A stretch of DNA of 64,000 nucleotides, taken from Bradyrhizobium ottawaense (GTDB taxonomy: Bacteria; Pseudomonadota; Alphaproteobacteria; Rhizobiales; Xanthobacteraceae). The notes under the pieces are model-generated. The model was given only the letters and a program-made list of their open reading frames with translations. It did no database searches and was not told the DNA's origin. The stretch covers positions 5,804,001-5,868,000 of the forward strand of contig NZ_CP029425.2 in assembly GCF_002278135.3 (NCBI RefSeq), read 5' to 3'. Position 1 is the first letter of the stretch. Each line of letters starts with the position of its first letter. Of this stretch, positions 37,321 to 61,686 are shown one piece after another. Made by a program: the position numbers and the translations under genes.

Positions 37321-38478
37321 ATGAGCACGGCCGCGACGTCCTTTCCCGAGAGGAATGCCGCTGAGGTCGCGGATCTCGTGCTCACGCCCGAGGCGGCGGC
37401 TTCCGAAGTGCTGGCGCGCCGGGCCCGGCAGCGCCGCCAGATGTATATCGGCCAGGTGGCGAGCTATTCGCTGGGCGCCTCGGTCCTGCTGCTCTACGCC
37501 TATGGCGGCGCCGTCTCCATGGCCGTTCCATCGCTGTTCTGGCTCGGCGGCCTCCTGATCATCGGTACGTTCACCGTGCTCTCGGAAGCCGGCTTCGGCG
37601 ACCGGTTCGAGGATCATTACCTCACCGTCTTCCAGATCTCGGCGCATATGGCGTTGCAGCTGCTGTTCCTGCTCGCAGTGCCGACGGTCGGGGTCGCGTT
37701 CATCGCCGTGCTGTTTCTGATCTTCGCGTTTGGCACGCTGCGGATGACCTCGAGCCAGGCGATGGTGACCTGGGGCCTTGCCACCTGCGGGCTCGCCCTG
37801 GTCTTCCTGGGCTCGGACCTGCCGATCGGACTGCCGGTTGAAACCCGCCTGGAGCGAACCGCATCGATGCTCTGCTTCGTGCTGGTGATCGGCCAGTGCG
37901 CCTTCCTCGGCCTGTTCGGCGCCACCCTGCGCAAGATCCTGTACCGGCGCAGCATCGAGCTGAAGGCCGCCTATCAGCGCATCGAGGAGCTGGCCGAGCT
38001 CGACGAGCTCACCGGCTCCTACAACCGCCGCTGCATCATGCGCCTGCTCGACGCCGAGATCGAAAAGTCGCGGCAGACATCGATGCCCTGCGCGATCGCA
38101 CTGATCGATCTCGACTGGTTCAAGCGCATCAACGACGCCCACGGCCATCCCGTCGGCGACGAGGTGCTGCGCACCTTCGCGATCACCATGTTCGCCAACA
38201 TCCGCCCGGCCGACTGCTTCGGCCGCTACGGCGGCGAGGAATTCCTCCTGCTGCTGCCGGACACGTCGGACGACGCCGCACAGCGCATGCTCGAGCGCTT
38301 GCGCGGTATCATCGCCGATCTCGACTGGAGCGCATTCTCCCTGAATATGCGGGTGACCATTTCCGCGGGCGTGGTGACGCTGCGCGACGTCGATACTGCC
38401 GACACGTTTCTCGCGCGCGCCGATCGCGCGCTCTATTCCGCCAAGGCGCAAGGGCGCAACCGCATTGCAACGAGCTGA
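37321..38478 (+). CDS. Membrane-bound GGDEF diguanylate cyclase
   Basis: The protein should make cyclic di-GMP. Of 385 residues, about 40-205 form six transmembrane helices, residues ~210-225 a linker helix and ~225-385 a GGDEF domain. The active site is GGEEF (304-308), preceded by the inhibitory-site motif RPAD (295-298) at the correct five-residue distance; DLDWFKRINDAHGHPVGDE is the substrate-binding segment. Both active and feedback sites are therefore intact. No extracellular sensor domain is present, so sensing is likely within the membrane part. The DUF2336 gene follows after 63 bases on the same strand. Confidence 0.93.
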   Translation: MSTAATSFPERNAAEVADLVLTPEAAASEVLARRARQRRQMYIGQVASYSLGASVLLLYAYGGAVSMAVPSLFWLGGLLIIGTFTVLSEAGFGDRFEDHYLTVFQISAHMALQLLFLLAVPTVGVAFIAVLFLIFAFGTLRMTSSQAMVTWGLATCGLALVFLGSDLPIGLPVETRLERTASMLCFVLVIGQCAFLGLFGATLRKILYRRSIELKAAYQRIEELAELDELTGSYNRRCIMRLLDAEIEKSRQTSMPCAIALIDLDWFKRINDAHGHPVGDEVLRTFAITMFANIRPADCFGRYGGEEFLLLLPDTSDDAAQRMLERLRGIIADLDWSAFSLNMRVTISAGVVTLRDVDTADTFLARADRALYSAKAQGRNRIATS

Positions 38479-53187: not shown

Positions 53188-56100
53188 TCAATGAAAATCC
53201 CGCGACGGCGGCAGGATGCGGACGTTGCGGGGGTGGCGGATTTTCTGCGCCGGCATGTCCGCAAGCGCGCGAGAGTCTTCGTTGAGCGGCTCGACCACGG
53301 TGGCACCTGCCGGCACCGGATGCTTGCGGCTCAGCGCGTCGTTGGCGAGGCCGACCAGATCATGCGAGCGATCGATCATGCGTTGGGCGATGAGATGCGT
53401 CACCTTCTCGGGACTGCTCTGGATATAGCCTTCGACCAGGATGAGGCGCGCGCCCATGACTTCTTTCCGGTACTGCTCCATGATCTTGGGCCACACCACG
53501 ACATTGGCGATGCCGGTTTCGTCCTCCAGCGTCATGAACACGACGCCGCTGGCGCTGCCCGGCCGTTGCCGCACCAGCACCACGCCGGCGCAGCGGACGC
53601 GGCGACGCTCGTTCTCGTGACTGATATCCTTGCAGGCGACGACGCGCTCGCGCGAAAACATTTCGCGCAAGAATTCCATCGGGTGCCCCTTCAGCGATAG
53701 CCGGATGGTCTGGTAGTCCGCGACCACCTGCTCGGAACGCGGCATCACCGGCAGCGGTTGCGCGTGCTCGTCCGGCTGCTCGCGCGCGGTCGCCGCCTCG
53801 AACAGCGGCAGCGGCACGTCGTCGGGCAGCCGCCGCACCTGCCACAGCGCCTCGCGGCGGTCGAGCCCGAGCGAGCGAAACGCGTCGGCATCGGCCAGCA
53901 GGATCAGCGCGCGCTTGGGCAGGCCGGTGTCGCGGGCGAAATCCTCCAGCGAGGTAAAGGGGCGGCGGTTGCGGGCGGCGATGATGCGGTCGCCCCAGTC
54001 TTCCTGAGTGACATAGATCTTGCCTTGCCGCTTCGCCTGCTCCTTCTTGAGGGCCTCCTCATCGGGATCGAGCCAGTGGAAGCCGTCGATCTGGCGAAAG
54101 CCAAGGCGGACGGCACAATACCTGCCGTCAGTATTCTCCAGCGTGTTCTGCGCAAAACTACAGGACACGTCGATGTCGCGCACCTCGACGCCGTTCTTGC
54201 GGGCGTCGCTGACGATCTGTGCGGGCGCATAAAAGCCCATCGGCTGCGAGTTCAGGAGGCCACAGCAGAAAGCGTCGGGGTGATGATATTTCAGCCATGA
54301 CGAGATGTAGACGAGCTGGGCGAAGCTCGCGGCGTGGCTCTCCGGGAAACCGTAGGAGCCAAAGCCCTTGATCTGGTCAAAGCAGCTTCTGGCAAAATTG
54401 GCATCGTAACCGCGCGCGACCATGTTGCCGATCAGCTTCTCCTCGTATTGGCCAATGGTGCCTACATTGCGGAAGGTCGCCATCGAGCGGCGCAGGCCGT
54501 TGGCTTCCTCGGACGTGAATTTTGCCGCCTCGATCGCGATGCGCATGGCCTGCTCCTGGAACAGAGGCACGCCCTTCGTCTTGTGCAGCACCTTGTAGAG
54601 TTCGTCCGCGGGACCATGCTCGGGCGATGGCGAGGGATAGGTCACCTTCTCCAGGCCGTTCCGCCGACGCAAATACGGATGCACCATGTCGCCCTGGATC
54701 GGACCCGGCCGCACGATCGCGACTTCGATGACGAGGTCGTAGAAGGTCCGCGGCTTCAGGCGCGGCAGCATGTTCATCTGGGCGCGGCTCTCGACCTGGA
54801 ACACGCCGAGCGATTCCCCATCACACAGCATGTCGTAAACCTTGGGATCGTCCTGTGGAACGCTCGCCAGCACAAAACGCTCGCCTTTGTGGTCTGCGAT
54901 CAGATCAAAACATTTCCGGATGCAGGTCAGCATGCCCAGCGCGAGCACGTCGACCTTCATCATGTTGAGCGCGTCGACGTCGTCCTTGTCCCACTCGATG
55001 AAGGTGCGGTCGTCCATCGCCGCGTTGCCGATGGGGACATAGGTGTCGAGCCGGTCCTGGGTCAGCACATAACCGCCGACATGCTGGGAGAGATGGCGGG
55101 GGAATTCGATCAGCTCGGTTGCAAGCTCGACTGCAAGGTTGATCATGGGATTTTGCGGATCGAGCCCGGCCTGCCTGACCTGCATATCGTTGAGGCCCTT
55201 GCCCCAACTGCCCCAGACGGTGTCGGCGAGCGCAGCGGTGACGTCCTCGGTCAGGCCCAGCGCCTTGCCGACGTCGCGGATGGCGCTGCGCGGGCGATAG
55301 TGGATGACCGTTGCGATGATCGCGGCACGATGGCGGCCGTAGCGGCGATAGACATACTGCATCACCTCCTCGCGCCGGGAATGCTCGAAATCGACGTCGA
55401 TGTCAGGCGGCTCCAGGCGCTCCTTGGAGATGAAGCGCTCGAACAACAGATCGACCTTGGTCGGATCGACCGAGGTGATGCCGAGCACGTAGCACACGGC
55501 TGAGTTCGCTGCCGACCCCCGCCCCTGGCACAGGATGCTCTGGCTGCGCGCGTAATGCACGATGTCGTGCACGGTGAGGAAATAATGCGCGTATTTCAGC
55601 TCGGCGATCAGCGCGAGTTCTTTGTTCAACGTCGCGCGCAGCTTGTCGTCAATGTTCTCGATGCCGCCAAAGTATTTATCGACGCCCGCCCAGGTCAAAT
55701 CCTCCAGATGTCCTTGCGCGGTCTTGCCCGGCGGCACCGGCTCATCCGGATACTGGTATTTGAGCTGGTCGAGCGAGAAGTCGATCTTCCCCGCAAAACG
55801 CATGGTCTCCGCGATCGCCTCGGGGACATCGCGGAACAGCCGCGCCATCTCCCTAGGTGTTTTCAGAAAACGCTCGGCATTGGCTTCCAGCTTACGCCCC
55901 ACAGCCTCGATCGTGGTCTTTTCCCGGATGCAGGTCAGCACGTCCTGAAGCGGACGGCGGCCGGGATCGTGATAGAGCACCTCGTTGGTCGCGAGCAGCG
56001 GCACTTTTGCTTTGGCCGCGAGGTCATCGAGCCGTGCCAGGCGGCGCCGGTCGTCGCCGCGATAGACCAGGCTCGCTGCCAGCCACACGCCCTCGGCGCG

Positions 56101-56568
56101 GCTCGCCCTCAGCTTTGCAAGCACATCCAGCGCCTGCGCCGGCTCGAAGCGATGCGGCAACGTCAGGACCAAAAGCTGCCCCTCGGAGAATTCCAGGAGA
56201 TCGGCAAAGGTGAGACGGCACTCGCCCTTCTCGATCCGCGTGATGTCGTCGCCGCGCTTGCCTTTGGTCAGGAGCTGGCACAGCCGGCCATAGGCGGCGC
56301 GGTCGCGCGGGTAGACAAAAATGTCGGGCGTGCCGTCGATGAAGACGATGCGCGCACCGATCAGCAGTTTCGGCTTGTGCAGCACCTTGTCATTGTCGAG
56401 CTCATTCCAGGCCCGCACCACGCCGGCGAGCGTGTTGTGGTCGGCGATTCCGATCGCGGGAATGCCGAGCTTGCTCGCCTGATGCACATAGGCGCGCGGA
56501 TCCGAGCCGCCGCGCAGGAAGGAGAAATTGGTGGTGATGCCGATCTCGGCATAAGCGGGGCTATTCAT
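53188..56568 (-). CDS. dnaE2: Error-prone DNA polymerase DnaE2 (ImuC)
   Basis: DnaE2 is the C-family polymerase that, with ImuA and ImuB, carries out damage-induced mutagenic translesion synthesis in bacteria lacking UmuDC. The 1126-residue product starts MNSPAYAEIGITTNFSFLRG with a PHP domain (SKLGIPAIGIADHNTLAGVV), has the palm aspartates in LEPPDIDVDFEHSRREEV and the GFGSYGFPESHAASFA segment. A C-terminal OB-fold (VRCAGVVLVRQRPGSASGVV, MTLEDETGIANVVVW) and a typical end IRHPRNVRILPPSRDF follow. The ATG overlaps the imuB stop (ATGA, 56565-56568). Last gene of the LexA-controlled imu operon. Confidence 0.96.
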   Translation of the reverse strand: MNSPAYAEIGITTNFSFLRGGSDPRAYVHQASKLGIPAIGIADHNTLAGVVRAWNELDNDKVLHKPKLLIGARIVFIDGTPDIFVYPRDRAAYGRLCQLLTKGKRGDDITRIEKGECRLTFADLLEFSEGQLLVLTLPHRFEPAQALDVLAKLRASRAEGVWLAASLVYRGDDRRRLARLDDLAAKAKVPLLATNEVLYHDPGRRPLQDVLTCIREKTTIEAVGRKLEANAERFLKTPREMARLFRDVPEAIAETMRFAGKIDFSLDQLKYQYPDEPVPPGKTAQGHLEDLTWAGVDKYFGGIENIDDKLRATLNKELALIAELKYAHYFLTVHDIVHYARSQSILCQGRGSAANSAVCYVLGITSVDPTKVDLLFERFISKERLEPPDIDVDFEHSRREEVMQYVYRRYGRHRAAIIATVIHYRPRSAIRDVGKALGLTEDVTAALADTVWGSWGKGLNDMQVRQAGLDPQNPMINLAVELATELIEFPRHLSQHVGGYVLTQDRLDTYVPIGNAAMDDRTFIEWDKDDVDALNMMKVDVLALGMLTCIRKCFDLIADHKGERFVLASVPQDDPKVYDMLCDGESLGVFQVESRAQMNMLPRLKPRTFYDLVIEVAIVRPGPIQGDMVHPYLRRRNGLEKVTYPSPSPEHGPADELYKVLHKTKGVPLFQEQAMRIAIEAAKFTSEEANGLRRSMATFRNVGTIGQYEEKLIGNMVARGYDANFARSCFDQIKGFGSYGFPESHAASFAQLVYISSWLKYHHPDAFCCGLLNSQPMGFYAPAQIVSDARKNGVEVRDIDVSCSFAQNTLENTDGRYCAVRLGFRQIDGFHWLDPDEEALKKEQAKRQGKIYVTQEDWGDRIIAARNRRPFTSLEDFARDTGLPKRALILLADADAFRSLGLDRREALWQVRRLPDDVPLPLFEAATAREQPDEHAQPLPVMPRSEQVVADYQTIRLSLKGHPMEFLREMFSRERVVACKDISHENERRRVRCAGVVLVRQRPGSASGVVFMTLEDETGIANVVVWPKIMEQYRKEVMGARLILVEGYIQSSPEKVTHLIAQRMIDRSHDLVGLANDALSRKHPVPAGATVVEPLNEDSRALADMPAQKIRHPRNVRILPPSRDFH

Positions 56569-58160
56569 GCGAAGAGACCGTGCACATACCAGCCGGGAGA
56601 AGCAGGCTCGCCGTCGCCGTCGAACACCTCCCCCTCGTAAAGTCCGTCGCGAAAAATCCAGAAGCGCAGGCCCTCGGCATCCTCGATGCGAAAGTAATCC
56701 CGGGTCAGCTGCTTGCCGTCCTGCCGCCACCATTCCATCGCGATACGCTCGGGTCCTTCCACCCGCACCACGGCATGCAGCGCGCGGCGCCAGGTGAACT
56801 GATGCGGCGGACCATCCGGCACGGCCGCGAATGGCACCTTGATCGGCTCCGGCTTGTCGAACAGCCTTAAGGGACGCAGCGGTGGCTCGCTTTCGGTCCG
56901 TGCCGGCCATTCGGCCTGCATGGCGGCGGCGAGATGATGCTGCGCCGGGGCGGCCAGCACCGCACATTCAGGGATATGGGTATCCTCAGGCAGGTGCACG
57001 ACGACGCGCTTTCCGCCGATGCGCGCGGCAATGCGGTCGATCAGGGCGGCAAGCTCGTCATTGTCGTGGACATGGGCGTCGAGATCGCGCTGCTCCTGCA
57101 CCACGATCTCGGTGCGGCTCGCCGACAGGCGAACCATATCGAAGCCAAAACCGGGATCGAGGGGATCGGCGAGCGCATCGAGACGCTCGCGGAACAGCCG
57201 GTCGATCACCGCGCTTCGCGTCACCGGACGTCCGGTCTCGACCATGATCGCGCGCACCACGCCGTCGGTGCGGAAGAACGCGGCTTCCAGCCGGCGCGCG
57301 CCCTTGCCCTGCTTCTCCATGGAGGCAATCAGCGTGTCCGCCAGCCGCGACAGCGTCATCGCGATCATGGTGTCGGTCGCGATCGGCTCGGCGAAACGCT
57401 TCTCCACGATATAATCAGGCAGCGGTTTTCGCGGATTGATCGGCGCATCGCCCTGCCCCAGCGCATGCGCCAGCAGCGTGGAGAACCGCGCTCCGAACCG
57501 CGCCGTGATCTCGCTCGGCGAGCGCGTGGCGACGTCGCCGATGGTCTTGAGGCCGGCGCGGCGCAGGCCGGTGGTGATGGCCTCGCCCGCACCGAGCGCG
57601 GACACCGGAAACCGGCTGATCGCCTCCGCCTCGCCGCCATCGGCAACGATGGTGCCCGTGGTCTGCCGCGTCAGCGTGCGCGCGCAGACCGAGGTGCCGG
57701 CGATTGCCGCGCTGACGGCAAAGCCTTGTCGGCCGAGCGCCCGAACCAGCGCTTGCAACAGCGCAGCCTCGCCGCCGAACAGATGCGCACAGCCGGTGAT
57801 GTCGAGGAACAGCCCGTGCGGCGGATCGAGCGCGACCAGCGGCGTGAAGCGGTCGCACCAGTCGGCGATGTCGCTAAGCGTCTTCGCATCGGCCGCGACA
57901 TCGGCGTCGAACACGCGCAAATCCGGGCACATCGCCCGCGCATTGGCGAGCGGCTGACCTACGTACAGGCCGAGACGCTCGGCAGCCTCGTCCAGCGCAT
58001 GGATCACCAGCGCATTGTTGTCCTTGATGACGACGATGCTCGGCTCATTATTGGTTTTACCCAGCCCGGAGCTGTTGAAGAACCGCTGGATCCGGTCGAT
58101 GGGCAGGCGTGGCAGCCACAGGCTGAGAATACGTCGACGGTTCACTGAACTGGCACTCAT
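56565..58160 (-). CDS. imuB: ImuB, Y-family polymerase-like mutagenesis factor
   Basis: ImuB is a catalytically inactive Y-family protein that recruits DnaE2 to the beta clamp. From ATG 58160 it is 531 residues. The N-terminus RRILSLWLPRLPIDRIQR replaces the DxDxFF metal motif of true Y polymerases, and the second acidic motif is altered (LFLDITGCAHLFGGE), so it cannot polymerise. Little-finger-like and C-terminal ImuB-specific regions follow (RRALHAVVRVEGPERIAMEW; DYFRIEDAEGLRFWIFRDGL). Its 5' end overlaps imuA by 104 bases and its stop overlaps dnaE2 by four, so the three are tightly coupled. Confidence 0.93.
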   Translation of the reverse strand: MSASSVNRRRILSLWLPRLPIDRIQRFFNSSGLGKTNNEPSIVVIKDNNALVIHALDEAAERLGLYVGQPLANARAMCPDLRVFDADVAADAKTLSDIADWCDRFTPLVALDPPHGLFLDITGCAHLFGGEAALLQALVRALGRQGFAVSAAIAGTSVCARTLTRQTTGTIVADGGEAEAISRFPVSALGAGEAITTGLRRAGLKTIGDVATRSPSEITARFGARFSTLLAHALGQGDAPINPRKPLPDYIVEKRFAEPIATDTMIAMTLSRLADTLIASMEKQGKGARRLEAAFFRTDGVVRAIMVETGRPVTRSAVIDRLFRERLDALADPLDPGFGFDMVRLSASRTEIVVQEQRDLDAHVHDNDELAALIDRIAARIGGKRVVVHLPEDTHIPECAVLAAPAQHHLAAAMQAEWPARTESEPPLRPLRLFDKPEPIKVPFAAVPDGPPHQFTWRRALHAVVRVEGPERIAMEWWRQDGKQLTRDYFRIEDAEGLRFWIFRDGLYEGEVFDGDGEPASPGWYVHGLFA

Positions 58161-58845
58161 CACAATTCCATTCCATGATCCACCGGCCGCAGGGGCCATG
58201 ACGATTACGCAAGAGTTCGGCATCGAAGCGCGGCGCGCCCCATGCGTCCCACACCGACCCCGGCGGCGAATGCGCCGCGCGCAGCATCCACCTGGTCTCC
58301 GCCGTCGAAGGCAGCGGCTGCGCCGCCATCCGCAGCATCAGGCCGGTGACGCCGGAGCCTTGCGCGGCCAGCGTCAGCTTGCGGCTCGCCACGAGATCGA
58401 ACTGCCTGGTTTCGCCCCAGAGCTCGAGCACGACGGCGCCCAGCGCATCGCAGGCGAGCGCATCGGCCGAGGTACGCAGCGCGCTCTCGACATCGGCGGC
58501 GCGCACCATCACCACACGGCGCGGATCGAGGCCGAGCTCGGCGAGCCCGCTCATCGACAGCGCGCCTGCCTCTATCTCTGAAAAATCCTGCCGTACCCAC
58601 AGCAGCGGCCGCTGCGCCGAGACGCGCCCGGCAAGCCCCATGACGAAGCCGGTCGCGGCCGTCCCCTGAGACCCAGTGCAAAACACCTCGTGGATCGCCG
58701 CGCGCGCGAGCCCGCCCTTCAGCGCGTTGTCGGCTTCGCTGTGACCGAGCGCGACGCGATCGTGCGGATGCACGACCGTCGCCGTCTCGATGCGCTCGAT
58801 CTGGCCGCGCAAGGTCGCAAGCGCGCTTGTCCGTGCGCCGCTCAT
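58057..58845 (-). CDS. imuA: ImuA, RecA-like mutagenesis factor
   Basis: The 262-residue protein belongs to the ImuA family, RecA/SulA-related proteins needed with ImuB and DnaE2 for damage-induced mutagenesis. It begins TSALATLRGQIERIETATVV and contains AIHEVFCTGSQGTAATGFVM, RPLLWVRQDFSEIEAGALSM and GAVVLELWGETRQFDLVASR. The usual ATP-binding loop of RecA is degenerate. ATG at 58845. Its last ~100 bases overlap imuB in another frame. It is the first gene of the imuA-imuB-dnaE2 operon, 67 bases from the LexA box at 58912-58926. Confidence 0.9.
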   Translation of the reverse strand: MSGARTSALATLRGQIERIETATVVHPHDRVALGHSEADNALKGGLARAAIHEVFCTGSQGTAATGFVMGLAGRVSAQRPLLWVRQDFSEIEAGALSMSGLAELGLDPRRVVMVRAADVESALRTSADALACDALGAVVLELWGETRQFDLVASRKLTLAAQGSGVTGLMLRMAAQPLPSTAETRWMLRAAHSPPGSVWDAWGAPRFDAELLRNRHGPCGRWIMEWNCDECQFSEPSTYSQPVAATPAHRPDPAVLQQLRAG

Positions 58846-58911
58846 GCTCGCCGCTCCTTCAGGGGTGATTGCCGATGGCTCTCAAAAAGAGAACCAGCGG
58901 CTGGCTCATTT

Positions 58912-58926
58912 GTTCATGATATGTTC
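58912..58926. promoter_or_regulatory. LexA (SOS) box GTTC-N7-GTTC
   Basis: GTTCATGATATGTTC is an exact alphaproteobacterial LexA site, in an AT-rich divergent intergenic region (58846-59008). It lies 67 bases upstream of imuA and 83 bases upstream of the radical SAM gene, and could repress both operons. imuA-imuB-dnaE2 operons are established LexA targets in this class. Confidence 0.85.
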
Positions 58927-59008
58927 TAATATAAAGCTAACGGCGCGGAGAGAGTCAATCGAATTGGCGCGCAAGCGGATTCATGAGCTGAATCAAAGGG
59001 ATTCCAAG

Positions 59009-60244
59009 ATGGACGTACAACGCAAGCTGGAAATCCTGGCGGACGCCGCCAAATACGACGCGTCCTGCGCCTCCAGCGGCACGGAGAAGCGGGATTCCAG
59101 CGACGGCAAGGGCATGGGGTCGACCGCACCCGGCATGGGCATCTGCCATTCCTATGCGCCGGATGGACGCTGCATCTCGCTGCTCAAGGTGCTGCTGACC
59201 AACGCCTGCAATTACGATTGCCTCTATTGCGTCAACCGCGCCTCCTCGAACGTGCCGCGCGCCCGCTTCACCATCGACGAATTGGTCAAGCTGACGCTCG
59301 ACTTCTACCGGCGCAATTACATCGAGGGCCTGTTTCTCTCCTCCGGCATCATCCGCAACCCCGACTACACCATGGAGCAAGTGGTGAGCGTCGCGCGAAA
59401 GCTGCGCGAGGAGCATCACTTCCGCGGCTATATCCATCTCAAGACCATTCCCGAGGCCGACGATGCGCTGATCGCGGAAGCCGGCAAATATGCCGATCGT
59501 CTCTCCATCAACATCGAGATGCCCGAGGAAACGAGCCTGCAGCAATTCGCGCCGGAGAAGGACGTGCGCGCGATCCGCCGCACCATGGGCCGGCTGCGGC
59601 TGAAGCTGGACGAGGCCGAGGAAGGCCGCAGCGCGAAGACCAAGGCAAAGCCGCAGCGCTTCGCGCCGGCGGGCCAAAGCACGCAGATGATCGTCGGTGC
59701 TGATGCAGCCTCCGACCACACCATTCTCCACACCAGCGCCAATCTCTACGGCGCCTACCGTCTGCGGCGCGTCTACTACTCCGCCTTCAGCCCGATCCCC
59801 GACGCCAGCCGCGCCTTGCCTCTGGTGCAGCCGCCGCTGCTGCGCGAGCACCGGCTCTACCAGGCCGACTGGCTGATGCGGTTCTACGGTTTCGACGTTG
59901 CGGAGATCGTCGACGACAGCGCGATGCTGCCGCTCGACATCGATCCGAAGCTGGCCTGGGCGCTGCGTCATCGCGACCGCTTCCCGCTCGACGTCAACCG
60001 CGCCAGCCGCGAGGAGCTGCTGCGCGTGCCGGGCTTCGGCACCAAGGCGGTCGAGCGCATCATTGCAACACGGCGCACCACCACGATCCGCCTCGCCGAT
60101 CTCGCCCGCCTGCACGTGCCCCGCAACAAGGCGCTGCCGTTCATCGTCCTCAGCGATCACCGGCCCTCGCCGCACCGTCTTGATGCGGCCGGGCTGATCG
60201 AACGGTTCAAGCCGAAAGCAACGCAACTGGGATTTGGCTTCTGA
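59009..60244 (+). CDS. Radical SAM putative DNA modification/repair protein (TIGR03916 family)
   Basis: The 411-residue protein belongs to the radical SAM group genetically linked to uracil-DNA glycosylase-like proteins. The cluster motif is LLTNACNYDCLYCVNRAS (Cys-x3-Cys-x2-Cys), preceded by an N-terminal DVQRKLEILADAAKYDASC. The core barrel has YRRNYIEGLFLSSGIIRNPD and the C-terminus ends in a helix-hairpin-helix DNA-binding unit (NRASREELLRVPGFGTKAVE). ATG 59009 follows AAAGGG. It shares a base with the next gene's start and lies downstream of the LexA box. The reaction is unknown; a DNA or nucleotide substrate is inferred from the HhH and context. Confidence 0.88.
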   Translation: MDVQRKLEILADAAKYDASCASSGTEKRDSSDGKGMGSTAPGMGICHSYAPDGRCISLLKVLLTNACNYDCLYCVNRASSNVPRARFTIDELVKLTLDFYRRNYIEGLFLSSGIIRNPDYTMEQVVSVARKLREEHHFRGYIHLKTIPEADDALIAEAGKYADRLSINIEMPEETSLQQFAPEKDVRAIRRTMGRLRLKLDEAEEGRSAKTKAKPQRFAPAGQSTQMIVGADAASDHTILHTSANLYGAYRLRRVYYSAFSPIPDASRALPLVQPPLLREHRLYQADWLMRFYGFDVAEIVDDSAMLPLDIDPKLAWALRHRDRFPLDVNRASREELLRVPGFGTKAVERIIATRRTTTIRLADLARLHVPRNKALPFIVLSDHRPSPHRLDAAGLIERFKPKATQLGFGF

Positions 60245-61686
60245 TGCAGTACATCACCCTCGACACCGAAACCCATTTCGACGGCTGGCGCAAAGCCGCG
60301 CGCAGCCTCGTGCTTCATCACGTGCAGCCCACCGATGTCACCTGGACCGTGCAGGGCGGCGAGGCGGAGTTGTTCGCGCCGCAAGCACCGTCTCCGATCC
60401 TCGAGGCGAACGAAGGCACCTTCAACGTATCAGGCAAATTCGTCGAGCTAGCCCAGGCCGCAATCCTGCACCGCGATATCCAGCGCTTTGCGATCCTCTA
60501 TCGCCTGCTCTGGCGGCTGAAGGACAACCACGATCTCATCGAGGTCGCGACCGACCCTGACGTCGCGCAGGTCACGGCGATGGCTCGCGCGGTCCATCGC
60601 GACGAGCACAAGATGCACGCCTTCGTCCGCTTCCGCGAGATCGGACGCGAGCGCGCAGCACATTACGTCGCCTGGTTCGAGCCGGAGCATCACATCGTCG
60701 AGCTCGCCGCCCCGTTCTTCGCAAGACGCTTTGCCGACATGCCCTGGTCGATCCTGACGCCGGACCTCTGCGCGCATTGGGATGGCCACGCGCTCGCGTT
60801 CACGCCGGGCGTCAGCAAGAGCGAAGCACCGGGCGAAGACCGGCTGGAGGAAACCTGGCGGCGCTATTACGCCAGCATCTTCAATCCGGCCCGGCTCAAG
60901 GTGAAGGCGATGCAGGCCGAGATGCCGAAGAAATATTGGAGGAACCTGCCCGAGGCCTCGATCATTAAGCCCTTGATCGAGGACGCCGAACGCATGACCG
61001 GCGCCATGATCGCCAATGCGGCAACCGATCCGCACAAGCCTCAGAAGCGGCCGGAGGCTCCGATGAAACGCAAGCCAGCTGCCGACGATCTCGAAGCGCT
61101 CCGCGCGGAGGCCGCGCATTGCCGGGCCTGCCATCTCTACAAGGACGCGACCCAGACCGTGTTCGGCGAGGGCCCGAGATCCGCCAACATCATGCTGGTC
61201 GGCGAGCAGCCCGGCGACAAGGAAGACCTCGCCGGCCATCCGTTCGTCGGTCCGGCCGGCCAGATGCTCGACCGTGCGCTGGAGGAGGCCGGTGTCGACC
61301 GCAAGAAAGTTTATGTCACCAACGCGGTGAAGCACTTCAAATTCGTGCCGCGCGGAAAGATCCGCCTGCACCAGAAGCCGAATACGCCGGAGATCAAAGC
61401 GTGCCGGCAATGGTTCGAACGGGAAGTTTCGGCAATCCAGCCTGATCTGATCGTGGCGATGGGCGCCACCGCCGCGCAAAGCGTGTTCGGCAAGATCACT
61501 CCGATCGGCAAGACCCGCGGCCGGCTCATCGACCTTCCCGACGGACGCAAGGCTTTGGTGACGGTGCACCCGTCCTATCTGCTGCGGCTGCCCGATCCGG
61601 AAGCCAAGGTTCTGGAATATCAGCGCTTTGTCGACGATTTGAAGATCGTGGCCGGCTTGCAGAAGAAAGCCGCGCGGGCCGCCTAA
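60244..61686 (+). CDS. udgX: Fused TIGR03915/UdgX family uracil-DNA binding protein
   Basis: UdgX proteins recognise uracil in DNA and, uniquely, stay covalently attached through a histidine. This 480-residue protein has two parts. Residues ~1-250 are the TIGR03915-type domain (FAILYRLLWRLKDNHDLIEV; REIGRERAAHYVAWFEPEHH). Residues ~280-475 are a UdgX uracil-DNA glycosylase fold with C293 and C296 (HCRACHLYKDA), motif LVGEQPGDKEDLAGHPFVGP, the R-loop FVPRGKIRLHQKPN with the candidate covalent His376, C387 and VTVHPSYLLR. The loop reads KIRLH rather than KRRIH. The start shares a base with the radical SAM stop, so both are co-expressed. Confidence 0.88.
   Translation: MQYITLDTETHFDGWRKAARSLVLHHVQPTDVTWTVQGGEAELFAPQAPSPILEANEGTFNVSGKFVELAQAAILHRDIQRFAILYRLLWRLKDNHDLIEVATDPDVAQVTAMARAVHRDEHKMHAFVRFREIGRERAAHYVAWFEPEHHIVELAAPFFARRFADMPWSILTPDLCAHWDGHALAFTPGVSKSEAPGEDRLEETWRRYYASIFNPARLKVKAMQAEMPKKYWRNLPEASIIKPLIEDAERMTGAMIANAATDPHKPQKRPEAPMKRKPAADDLEALRAEAAHCRACHLYKDATQTVFGEGPRSANIMLVGEQPGDKEDLAGHPFVGPAGQMLDRALEEAGVDRKKVYVTNAVKHFKFVPRGKIRLHQKPNTPEIKACRQWFEREVSAIQPDLIVAMGATAAQSVFGKITPIGKTRGRLIDLPDGRKALVTVHPSYLLRLPDPEAKVLEYQRFVDDLKIVAGLQKKAARAA

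What the first reader, a model, noticed from the sequence alone, without database searches (positions are those of the whole stretch)
58057..61686. One LexA box serves two divergent DNA-damage operons
A perfect GTTC-N7-GTTC site (58912-58926) lies between imuA-imuB-dnaE2 on the minus strand and radical SAM-udgX on the plus strand, all within one 163-base divergent gap. The imu operon is a known SOS mutagenesis module. The location implies that the radical SAM/UdgX pair is part of the same SOS response, coupling translesion synthesis with a covalent uracil-DNA binder.
Basis: partly seen in the sequence, partly recalled or inferred. Interest (0 to 1): 0.7.

Follow-up and report, generated by a model that had tools for sequence, protein, structure and literature searches.

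The report
Shared SOS switch, mutasome and UdgX
In Bradyrhizobium a single likely DNA-damage switch sits between the genes for an error-prone DNA copying machine and the genes for a uracil-trapping protein; genome comparison supports the switch and suggests that the uracil trap is the partner that is seldom lost.

Summary
The site is real: GTTCATGATATGTTC (58912-58926) lies in the 163-bp gap between imuA-imuB-dnaE2 (minus) and rSAM - DUF4130::UdgX (plus). A bare GTTC-N7-GTTC is at chance frequency here; the form with an A/T-rich spacer is not (14 in the genome, 2 in the reversed control) and also lies before recA. In the 84 genomes read that have both operons, every gap has the box, 95-100 bp before rSAM in all but one. 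Away from imu the rSAM cassette has its own LexA-type box: 60 of 64 loci of the order without imuA in the locus, 103 of 108 alphaproteobacterial loci in all, and CTGT-N8-ACAG in 25 of 35 non-alpha loci against 0 of 108. SOS control of the cassette is thus supported by comparison; its kind is already in print (COG1573-COG4277 operon, PMC8565304). New here: one operator facing both operons, and an order of loss. In the genus rSAM is full length in 115 of 195 genomes (24 changes on an imuA tree), UdgX present in 188; 45 of 47 rSAM-less loci read keep DUF4130 and/or UdgX behind the same box. LexA binding, induction and joint action with the mutasome are inferred, not shown.

The parts
58912..58926 (+). 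LexA-type operator GTTC-N7-GTTC (GAACATATCATGAAC read towards imuA)
   Evidence: present in every measurable gap read in the genus; one of 14 refined-motif sites in the genome
58927..58961 (-). Inferred imu promoter: conserved TAATATAAAGCTAAC (58927-58941) with -10-like TATATT (minus, 58933-58928) and GAGTCAATCG (58952-58961) with -35-like TTGACT (minus, 58958-58953)
   Evidence: conserved with and without the rSAM cassette; no hexamer pair passes the consensus scan
58057..58845 (-). imuA (262 aa)
   Evidence: weak ImuA match below cut-off; gene order
56565..58160 (-). imuB (Y-family polymerase-like; open frame to 58223, start at 58160 inferred), overlaps imuA
   Evidence: IMS domains
53188..56568 (-). 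dnaE2 (start inferred, overlaps the imuB stop)
   Evidence: error-prone DNA polymerase, 1565 bits, cut-off 939
59009..60244 (+). radical SAM protein TIGR03916 (411 aa) with CxxxCxxC; weak C-terminal helix-hairpin-helix matches, below the Pfam cut-off
60244..61686 (+). DUF4130 (TIGR03915)::UdgX (TIGR03914) fusion, 480 aa; start shares one base with the rSAM stop
58871..58901 (-). predicted hairpin in the imuA leader RNA
   Evidence: alignment fold weak
58952..59004 (.). four GANTC sites (starting at 58952, 58978, 58990, 59000), possible CcrM methylation sites

Best explanation
One LexA operator in the divergent gap represses both imuA-imuB-dnaE2 and rSAM - DUF4130::UdgX; RecA-driven LexA cleavage after damage would release both together. 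Shown: the site, its conservation, the cassette's own LexA-type boxes elsewhere, repeated rSAM loss with UdgX kept. Inferred: LexA binding, the rightward promoter, induction. Likely role (inferred): UdgX removes uracil from single-stranded DNA at stalled forks or gaps and stays covalently bound to the abasic site, guarding it from cleavage until RecA-dependent recombination or DnaE2 synthesis deals with it; DUF4130 assists, and rSAM is an optional enzyme acting on DNA lesions.
For: Box and gap exact. Box in all 102 measurable gap rows (86 genomes: 84 with both operons, 2 with rSAM remnants); box start to rSAM start is 95-100 bp in 101 rows and 108 in one. Cassette boxes: 72 of 76 loci of the order (60 of 64 without imuA in the locus) and 31 of 32 further alphaproteobacterial loci carry GTTC-N7-GTTC within 110 bp of rSAM; each of eight other spacings at most 2 per set; 0 of 35 non-alpha loci; CTGT-N8-ACAG in 25 of 35 non-alpha and 0 of 108 alpha loci. 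The own gap has no second box with one mismatch or fewer. lexA has a box about 100 bp upstream; recA box. UdgX signature (GEQPGD, R-loop His, HPSYLLR) present. imuA in 195 of 195 genus genomes, UdgX in 188, full-length rSAM in 115. In print: SOS control of COG1573-COG4277 reported or predicted in other groups (PMC8565304, passages).
Against: The box is kept in L306 and L307, where no cassette was found, so need by imu alone could explain its conservation. L313, a related MAG, has the cassette with no imuA match and no box within 150 bp. The box lies 95-100 bp before rSAM; stand-alone cassettes mostly have it at about 20-55. The imuA side is also mostly of one length (near 65 bp), so the fixed rSAM side is weak evidence. 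No promoter passes a consensus scan in either direction. In Methylopila (L053, L317) and Henriciella (L370) two or more boxes lie before rSAM although imu is divergent. 10 of 35 non-alpha loci lack exact CTGT-N8-ACAG (5 of them within one mismatch); among named loci 0 of 8 gammaproteobacterial and 6 of 11 betaproteobacterial ones have it. No transcript data.
Confidence: 0.8

Rival explanations
1. The box is the operator of imu only; rSAM - DUF4130::UdgX has its own unregulated or differently regulated rightward promoter and is a neighbour by descent.
For: Box position fits an imu operator; box and flanks persist in L306 and L307, where no cassette was found; no recognisable rightward promoter at the box; L313 keeps the cassette without box and without an imuA match.
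Against: The cassette has a LexA-type box of its own in 60 of 64 loci of the order without imuA in the locus; the leader is kept in many loci where rSAM is deleted and DUF4130::UdgX has moved up to it.
Confidence: 0.14
2. The motif match is chance.
For: Bare GTTC-N7-GTTC is at chance frequency.
Against: Present in all measurable gaps while nearby columns vary; refined motif 14 against 2.
Confidence: 0.01
3. A second, cell-cycle input (CcrM methylation of the GANTC cluster read by GcrA) sets rightward expression, with or without LexA.
For: Four GANTC sites in 53 bp, the only cluster of three or more within 60 bp in the window; 4 in 63 of 85 distinct gaps, mean 3.75 against 1.09 in shuffles; three GcrA-family matches in the genome; imuA is among genes with conserved GANTC sites in Caulobacteraceae and Hyphomonadaceae (PMC7987155, passages).
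Against: For the own gap alone P = 0.014; none of the four sites fits the extended motif YGAKTCG (my reading); 48 of 64 rSAM upstream stretches of other lineages have no GANTC within 110 bp; one site overlaps the inferred imu -35 and one lies near the ribosome site; the GcrA model also rings in Sulfolobus among the controls.
Confidence: 0.1

Closest known systems
SOS-regulated uracil-DNA glycosylase operon COG1573-COG4277 (PMC8565304, passages read)
   Same: Two-gene UDG cassette under LexA-type control, reported in Verrucomicrobia and Alphaproteobacteria and predicted in Bacteroidetes; that COG4277 is the helix-hairpin-helix/rSAM protein is recalled
   Different: The passages read do not mention one operator shared with imu, UdgX by name, or loss of the rSAM gene with UdgX kept
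imuA-imuB-dnaE2 mutagenesis cassette
   Same: Gene order, overlapping genes, LexA-type box
   Different: Here the operator also faces a UdgX cassette
Mycobacterium smegmatis UdgX (6AJO and relatives)
   Different: Here fused behind DUF4130 and in an SOS-type operon
Divergent uvrA-ssb promoters of Sinorhizobium meliloti (a title seen in a reference list)
   Same: Divergent transcription of two DNA repair genes
   Different: Other genes; the paper itself was not read

Membership tests
LexA (SOS) operator of Alphaproteobacteria | GTTC-N7-GTTC direct repeat | tested here: met
   motif stated in PMC12700426 and PMC7987155 (passages)
LexA (SOS) operator of Alphaproteobacteria | Conserved before the same genes in relatives | tested here: met
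LexA (SOS) operator of Alphaproteobacteria | LexA binding and damage induction | not testable with these tools
   needs gel shift and transcripts
UdgX | GEQPG motif, R-loop with nucleophilic His, HPS motif | tested here: met
UdgX | Covalent complex with uracil-DNA | not testable with these tools
   biochemistry needed
TIGR03916 rSAM_link_UDG | Score over curated cut-off; CxxxCxxC | tested here: met
   564.4 of 343.5 bits; cysteines invariant in 13 sequences
imuA-imuB-dnaE2 cassette | DnaE2 over model cut-off and gene order | tested here: met
imuA-imuB-dnaE2 cassette | ImuA over NCBIfam NF033429 cut-off | tested here: not met
   39.3 of 150 bits; label rests on gene order, so 'ImuA-like'
GcrA-activated promoter | Extended motif YGAKTCG | tested here: not met
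   four sites read by eye against the motif named in PMC7987155 (passage)

The most novel reading that the evidence does not exclude
[quoted passage not shown] The rSAM enzyme is a dispensable helper, which is why it is lost again and again while UdgX stays behind the same operator.
Probability: 0.3. Interest if true: 0.75.

Novelty: new variant of a known kind. Interest (0 to 1): 0.5.

Why it matters
The cell role of UdgX is called largely unknown (PMC10359453, passages). A lineage-specific LexA-type box before its cassette, and its retention beside the mutasome when rSAM is lost, give a direct setting for a test: SOS mutagenesis epistasis between udgX and imu in a laboratory Bradyrhizobium.

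Tried and rejected
Upstream start of rSAM through the box (frame open from 58790): rejected, since box-to-start distance takes the values 95, 96, 97, 98, 99, 100 and 108 between loci, so the frame is not kept.

Standard promoter scan: none found in either direction. Rfam: one sub-threshold hit, E 0.93. RNAalifold over 92 leaders gave only a weak 4-pair structure, with 6 of 100 column shuffles as good, against the hairpin; folding each leader alone was clearer. A two-sequence leader alignment used wrong coordinates and is not used.

AlphaFold of rSAM was poor (pLDDT 61), so no fold search was made with it. The DUF4130 part of the fusion model gave no row in the PDB lists shown, but the UdgX domain fills those lists, so its fold stays open.

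The bare motif in the whole genome is not informative.

Primary papers for SOS control of the UDG cassette (refs 7 and 65 of PMC8565304) and two Erill papers are not held; I rely on the citing passages.

Full report
What is there. The window lies in an 8.59-Mb one-contig genome; its rSAM protein is 98% identical to one of Bradyrhizobium forestalis (L308). imuA (58845-58057), imuB and dnaE2 (to 53188) run left with overlapping ends; rSAM (59009-60244) and a 480-aa protein (60244-61686) run right, sharing one base. The 480-aa protein is DUF4130 fused to UdgX. The box 58912-58926 is as described.

Is it more than chance? The bare motif is not: window 2 against 1.68 expected, genome 159 against 231 in the reversed control. 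GTTC-N3-WWW-TGTTC is: 14 against 2. Among the 14 are this gap and sites before recA, an ssb-like gene and a SplB-like radical SAM gene (my reading of the translations; several other sites face short or unknown frames). lexA has its own bare-motif box about 100 bp upstream.

Genus test. Of 195 genus genomes, imuA matches in 195, full-length rSAM in 115 (my count of rows covering residues 1-411), UdgX at E below 1e-98 in 188 (my count; the other seven have only a match between 1e-30 and 1e-33, and one of these, G326, has rSAM near a contig end). I read gaps from 84 genomes with both operons (83 of the genus, a few of them outside the 195-genome sample, and the sister-genus genome G212) and from three rSAM remnants. 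One search lists 103 rows; 102 have a measurable gap (86 genomes) and all 102 have the box. The remaining row (L176, a remnant) was a failed gap extraction; its locus has the box. Box start to rSAM start is 95-100 bp in 101 rows and 108 in L156; the imuA side is 58-175 bp without remnants, mostly near 65, the longest values resting on uncertain imuA starts. Columns of the box, TAATATAAAGCTAAC and GAGTCAATCG are near invariant, with variable columns between them.

rSAM is lost, UdgX is kept. I read 47 rSAM-less loci (L113, L120, L124, L135, L176-L198, L288-L307), picked by me from the printed tables, not at random; 80 of 195 genomes lack full-length rSAM. All 47 have the box; 45 have DUF4130 and/or UdgX behind it; none was found in L306 and L307. 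L182 and L187 show UdgX and no DUF4130 match; L197 shows DUF4130 and no UdgX match. L188 joins the first 13 rSAM residues to DUF4130; L176-L178 hold rSAM remnants. From the printed coordinates, compared by eye, all 29 rSAM-less genomes for which both places were printed have UdgX divergent from and next to imuA. On an imuA tree of 125 sequences (78 with, 47 without rSAM) the label needs 24 changes, at least 14 forced by well-supported branches; the bootstrap had not settled. The UdgX signature is intact in 6 of 6 rSAM-less loci where all three motifs could be seen.

Wider test. In the order, 75 of 297 genomes pass the TIGR03916 cut-off. I read 76 loci (L004-L079: these 75, the own locus and a split gene included, and one partial gene). 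72 have GTTC-N7-GTTC within 110 bp of rSAM; 60 of the 64 without imuA in the locus do (30 of the 76 loci have only about 1.5 kb of flank or less). The four misses have a one-mismatch form. In the phylum, 103 of 397 pass; I read 32 further alphaproteobacterial loci (29 of 42 from other orders, 3 more of the order), 31 with the box, and all 35 non-alpha ones: 0 with the alpha box, 25 with CTGT-N8-ACAG, which is in 0 of 108 alpha loci. Eight other spacings of the alpha motif give at most 2 per set. That CTGT-N8-ACAG is the beta/gamma LexA motif is recalled.

Named loci (best 80 of a capped list; counts, within 150 bp): 51 of 55 alphaproteobacterial have GTTC-N7-GTTC; CTGT-N8-ACAG in 6 of 11 beta-, 0 of 8 gammaproteobacterial (mostly Xanthomonas and relatives), 1 of 2 Verrucomicrobiia and 0 of 1 Spartobacteria; of 3 unassigned, 2 have the alpha box. 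Other LexA motifs were not tested. One miss matters: L313, a MAG with rSAM 85% identical to ours, has DUF4130 and UdgX and the right-hand leader, but no imuA match and no box; other sequence joins just where the box would be.

Imu next to the cassette elsewhere. Methylopila (L317; L053, L057 and L060 are of the same type) and Henriciella pelagia (L370) have imu divergent from the cassette and two or more boxes before rSAM. Three loci of family f52 (L215, L218, L224) have imuB matches 1.4-1.5 kb upstream on the same strand, cut by the flank, and L264 of the same family has imuB upstream and dnaE2 downstream. How many independent origins there are was not tested.

Which side owns the box? It persists where no cassette was found (L306, L307), and the inferred imu -35 (TTGACT) and -10 (TATATT) place it at the imu start; this is inference, as the scan finds no consensus promoter. 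For the right side the box is the only candidate in the gap: the next best site has two mismatches.

Further features. Four GANTC sites lie between box and rSAM, with three GcrA-family matches in the genome; the extended GcrA motif is not matched. In Brucella, GcrA targets include lexA, but lexA induction by MMS did not need GcrA (PMC6813329, passages). The imuA leader folds into a hairpin: in 100 leaders GGUUC lies in a 5' arm in 84, median z -3.7; the alignment-based fold does not show it.

Known or new. PMC8565304 (passages) states SOS control of the COG1573-COG4277 operon in Verrucomicrobia and Alphaproteobacteria and predicts it in Bacteroidetes. PMC3765255 (passages) links DUF4130 to rSAM and UDG genes. 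Two UdgX papers (PMC10359453, PMC10776899) have no occurrence of 'SOS'. In the 20 of 57 papers listed and the 25 of 134 listed, none holds the word UdgX; one search lists 29 of 32 UdgX papers, mostly seen as list entries only. No paper joining UdgX, imu and LexA in one operator was seen; subscription journals are missing, so this is no proof of absence.

Verdict. Observation confirmed; SOS membership supported by comparison; functional coupling open. The most useful new facts are the shared operator and the order of loss: rSAM often, DUF4130 and UdgX seldom.

Noticed in passing
window 58871-58901 (minus); 100 genus leaders: A hairpin in the imuA leader RNA just after the LexA box is predicted when leaders are folded one by one (84 of 100 with GGUUC in a 5' arm) but not in the alignment fold; a terminator-like reading (58907-58891) overlaps it.
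   Followed up: partly
window 58952-59004: Cluster of four GANTC (CcrM-type) sites between box and rSAM, conserved in the genus; 48 of 64 other lineages' rSAM upstream stretches have none.
   Followed up: partly
L188, L176, L177, L178, L182, L187: Different rSAM remnants, an rSAM-start to DUF4130 join, and loci showing UdgX alone: several separate deletions at one locus.
   Followed up: yes
L313: Related MAG with the cassette and its leader, but other sequence in place of the box and no imuA match.
   Followed up: partly
L170, L169, L162: A second GTTC-N7-GTTC (minus) 21 bp before the main box in three loci with divergent imuA.
   Followed up: no
L264, L215, L218, L224: Cassette near imuB on the same strand (in L264 also dnaE2 downstream) in another alphaproteobacterial family.
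   Followed up: no
L399 (own genome, C1 near 6436725): Refined LexA-type box just before a SplB-like radical SAM gene.
   Followed up: no
window 37525-37539: Second bare GTTC-N7-GTTC of the window, inside an open frame; likely chance.
   Followed up: yes
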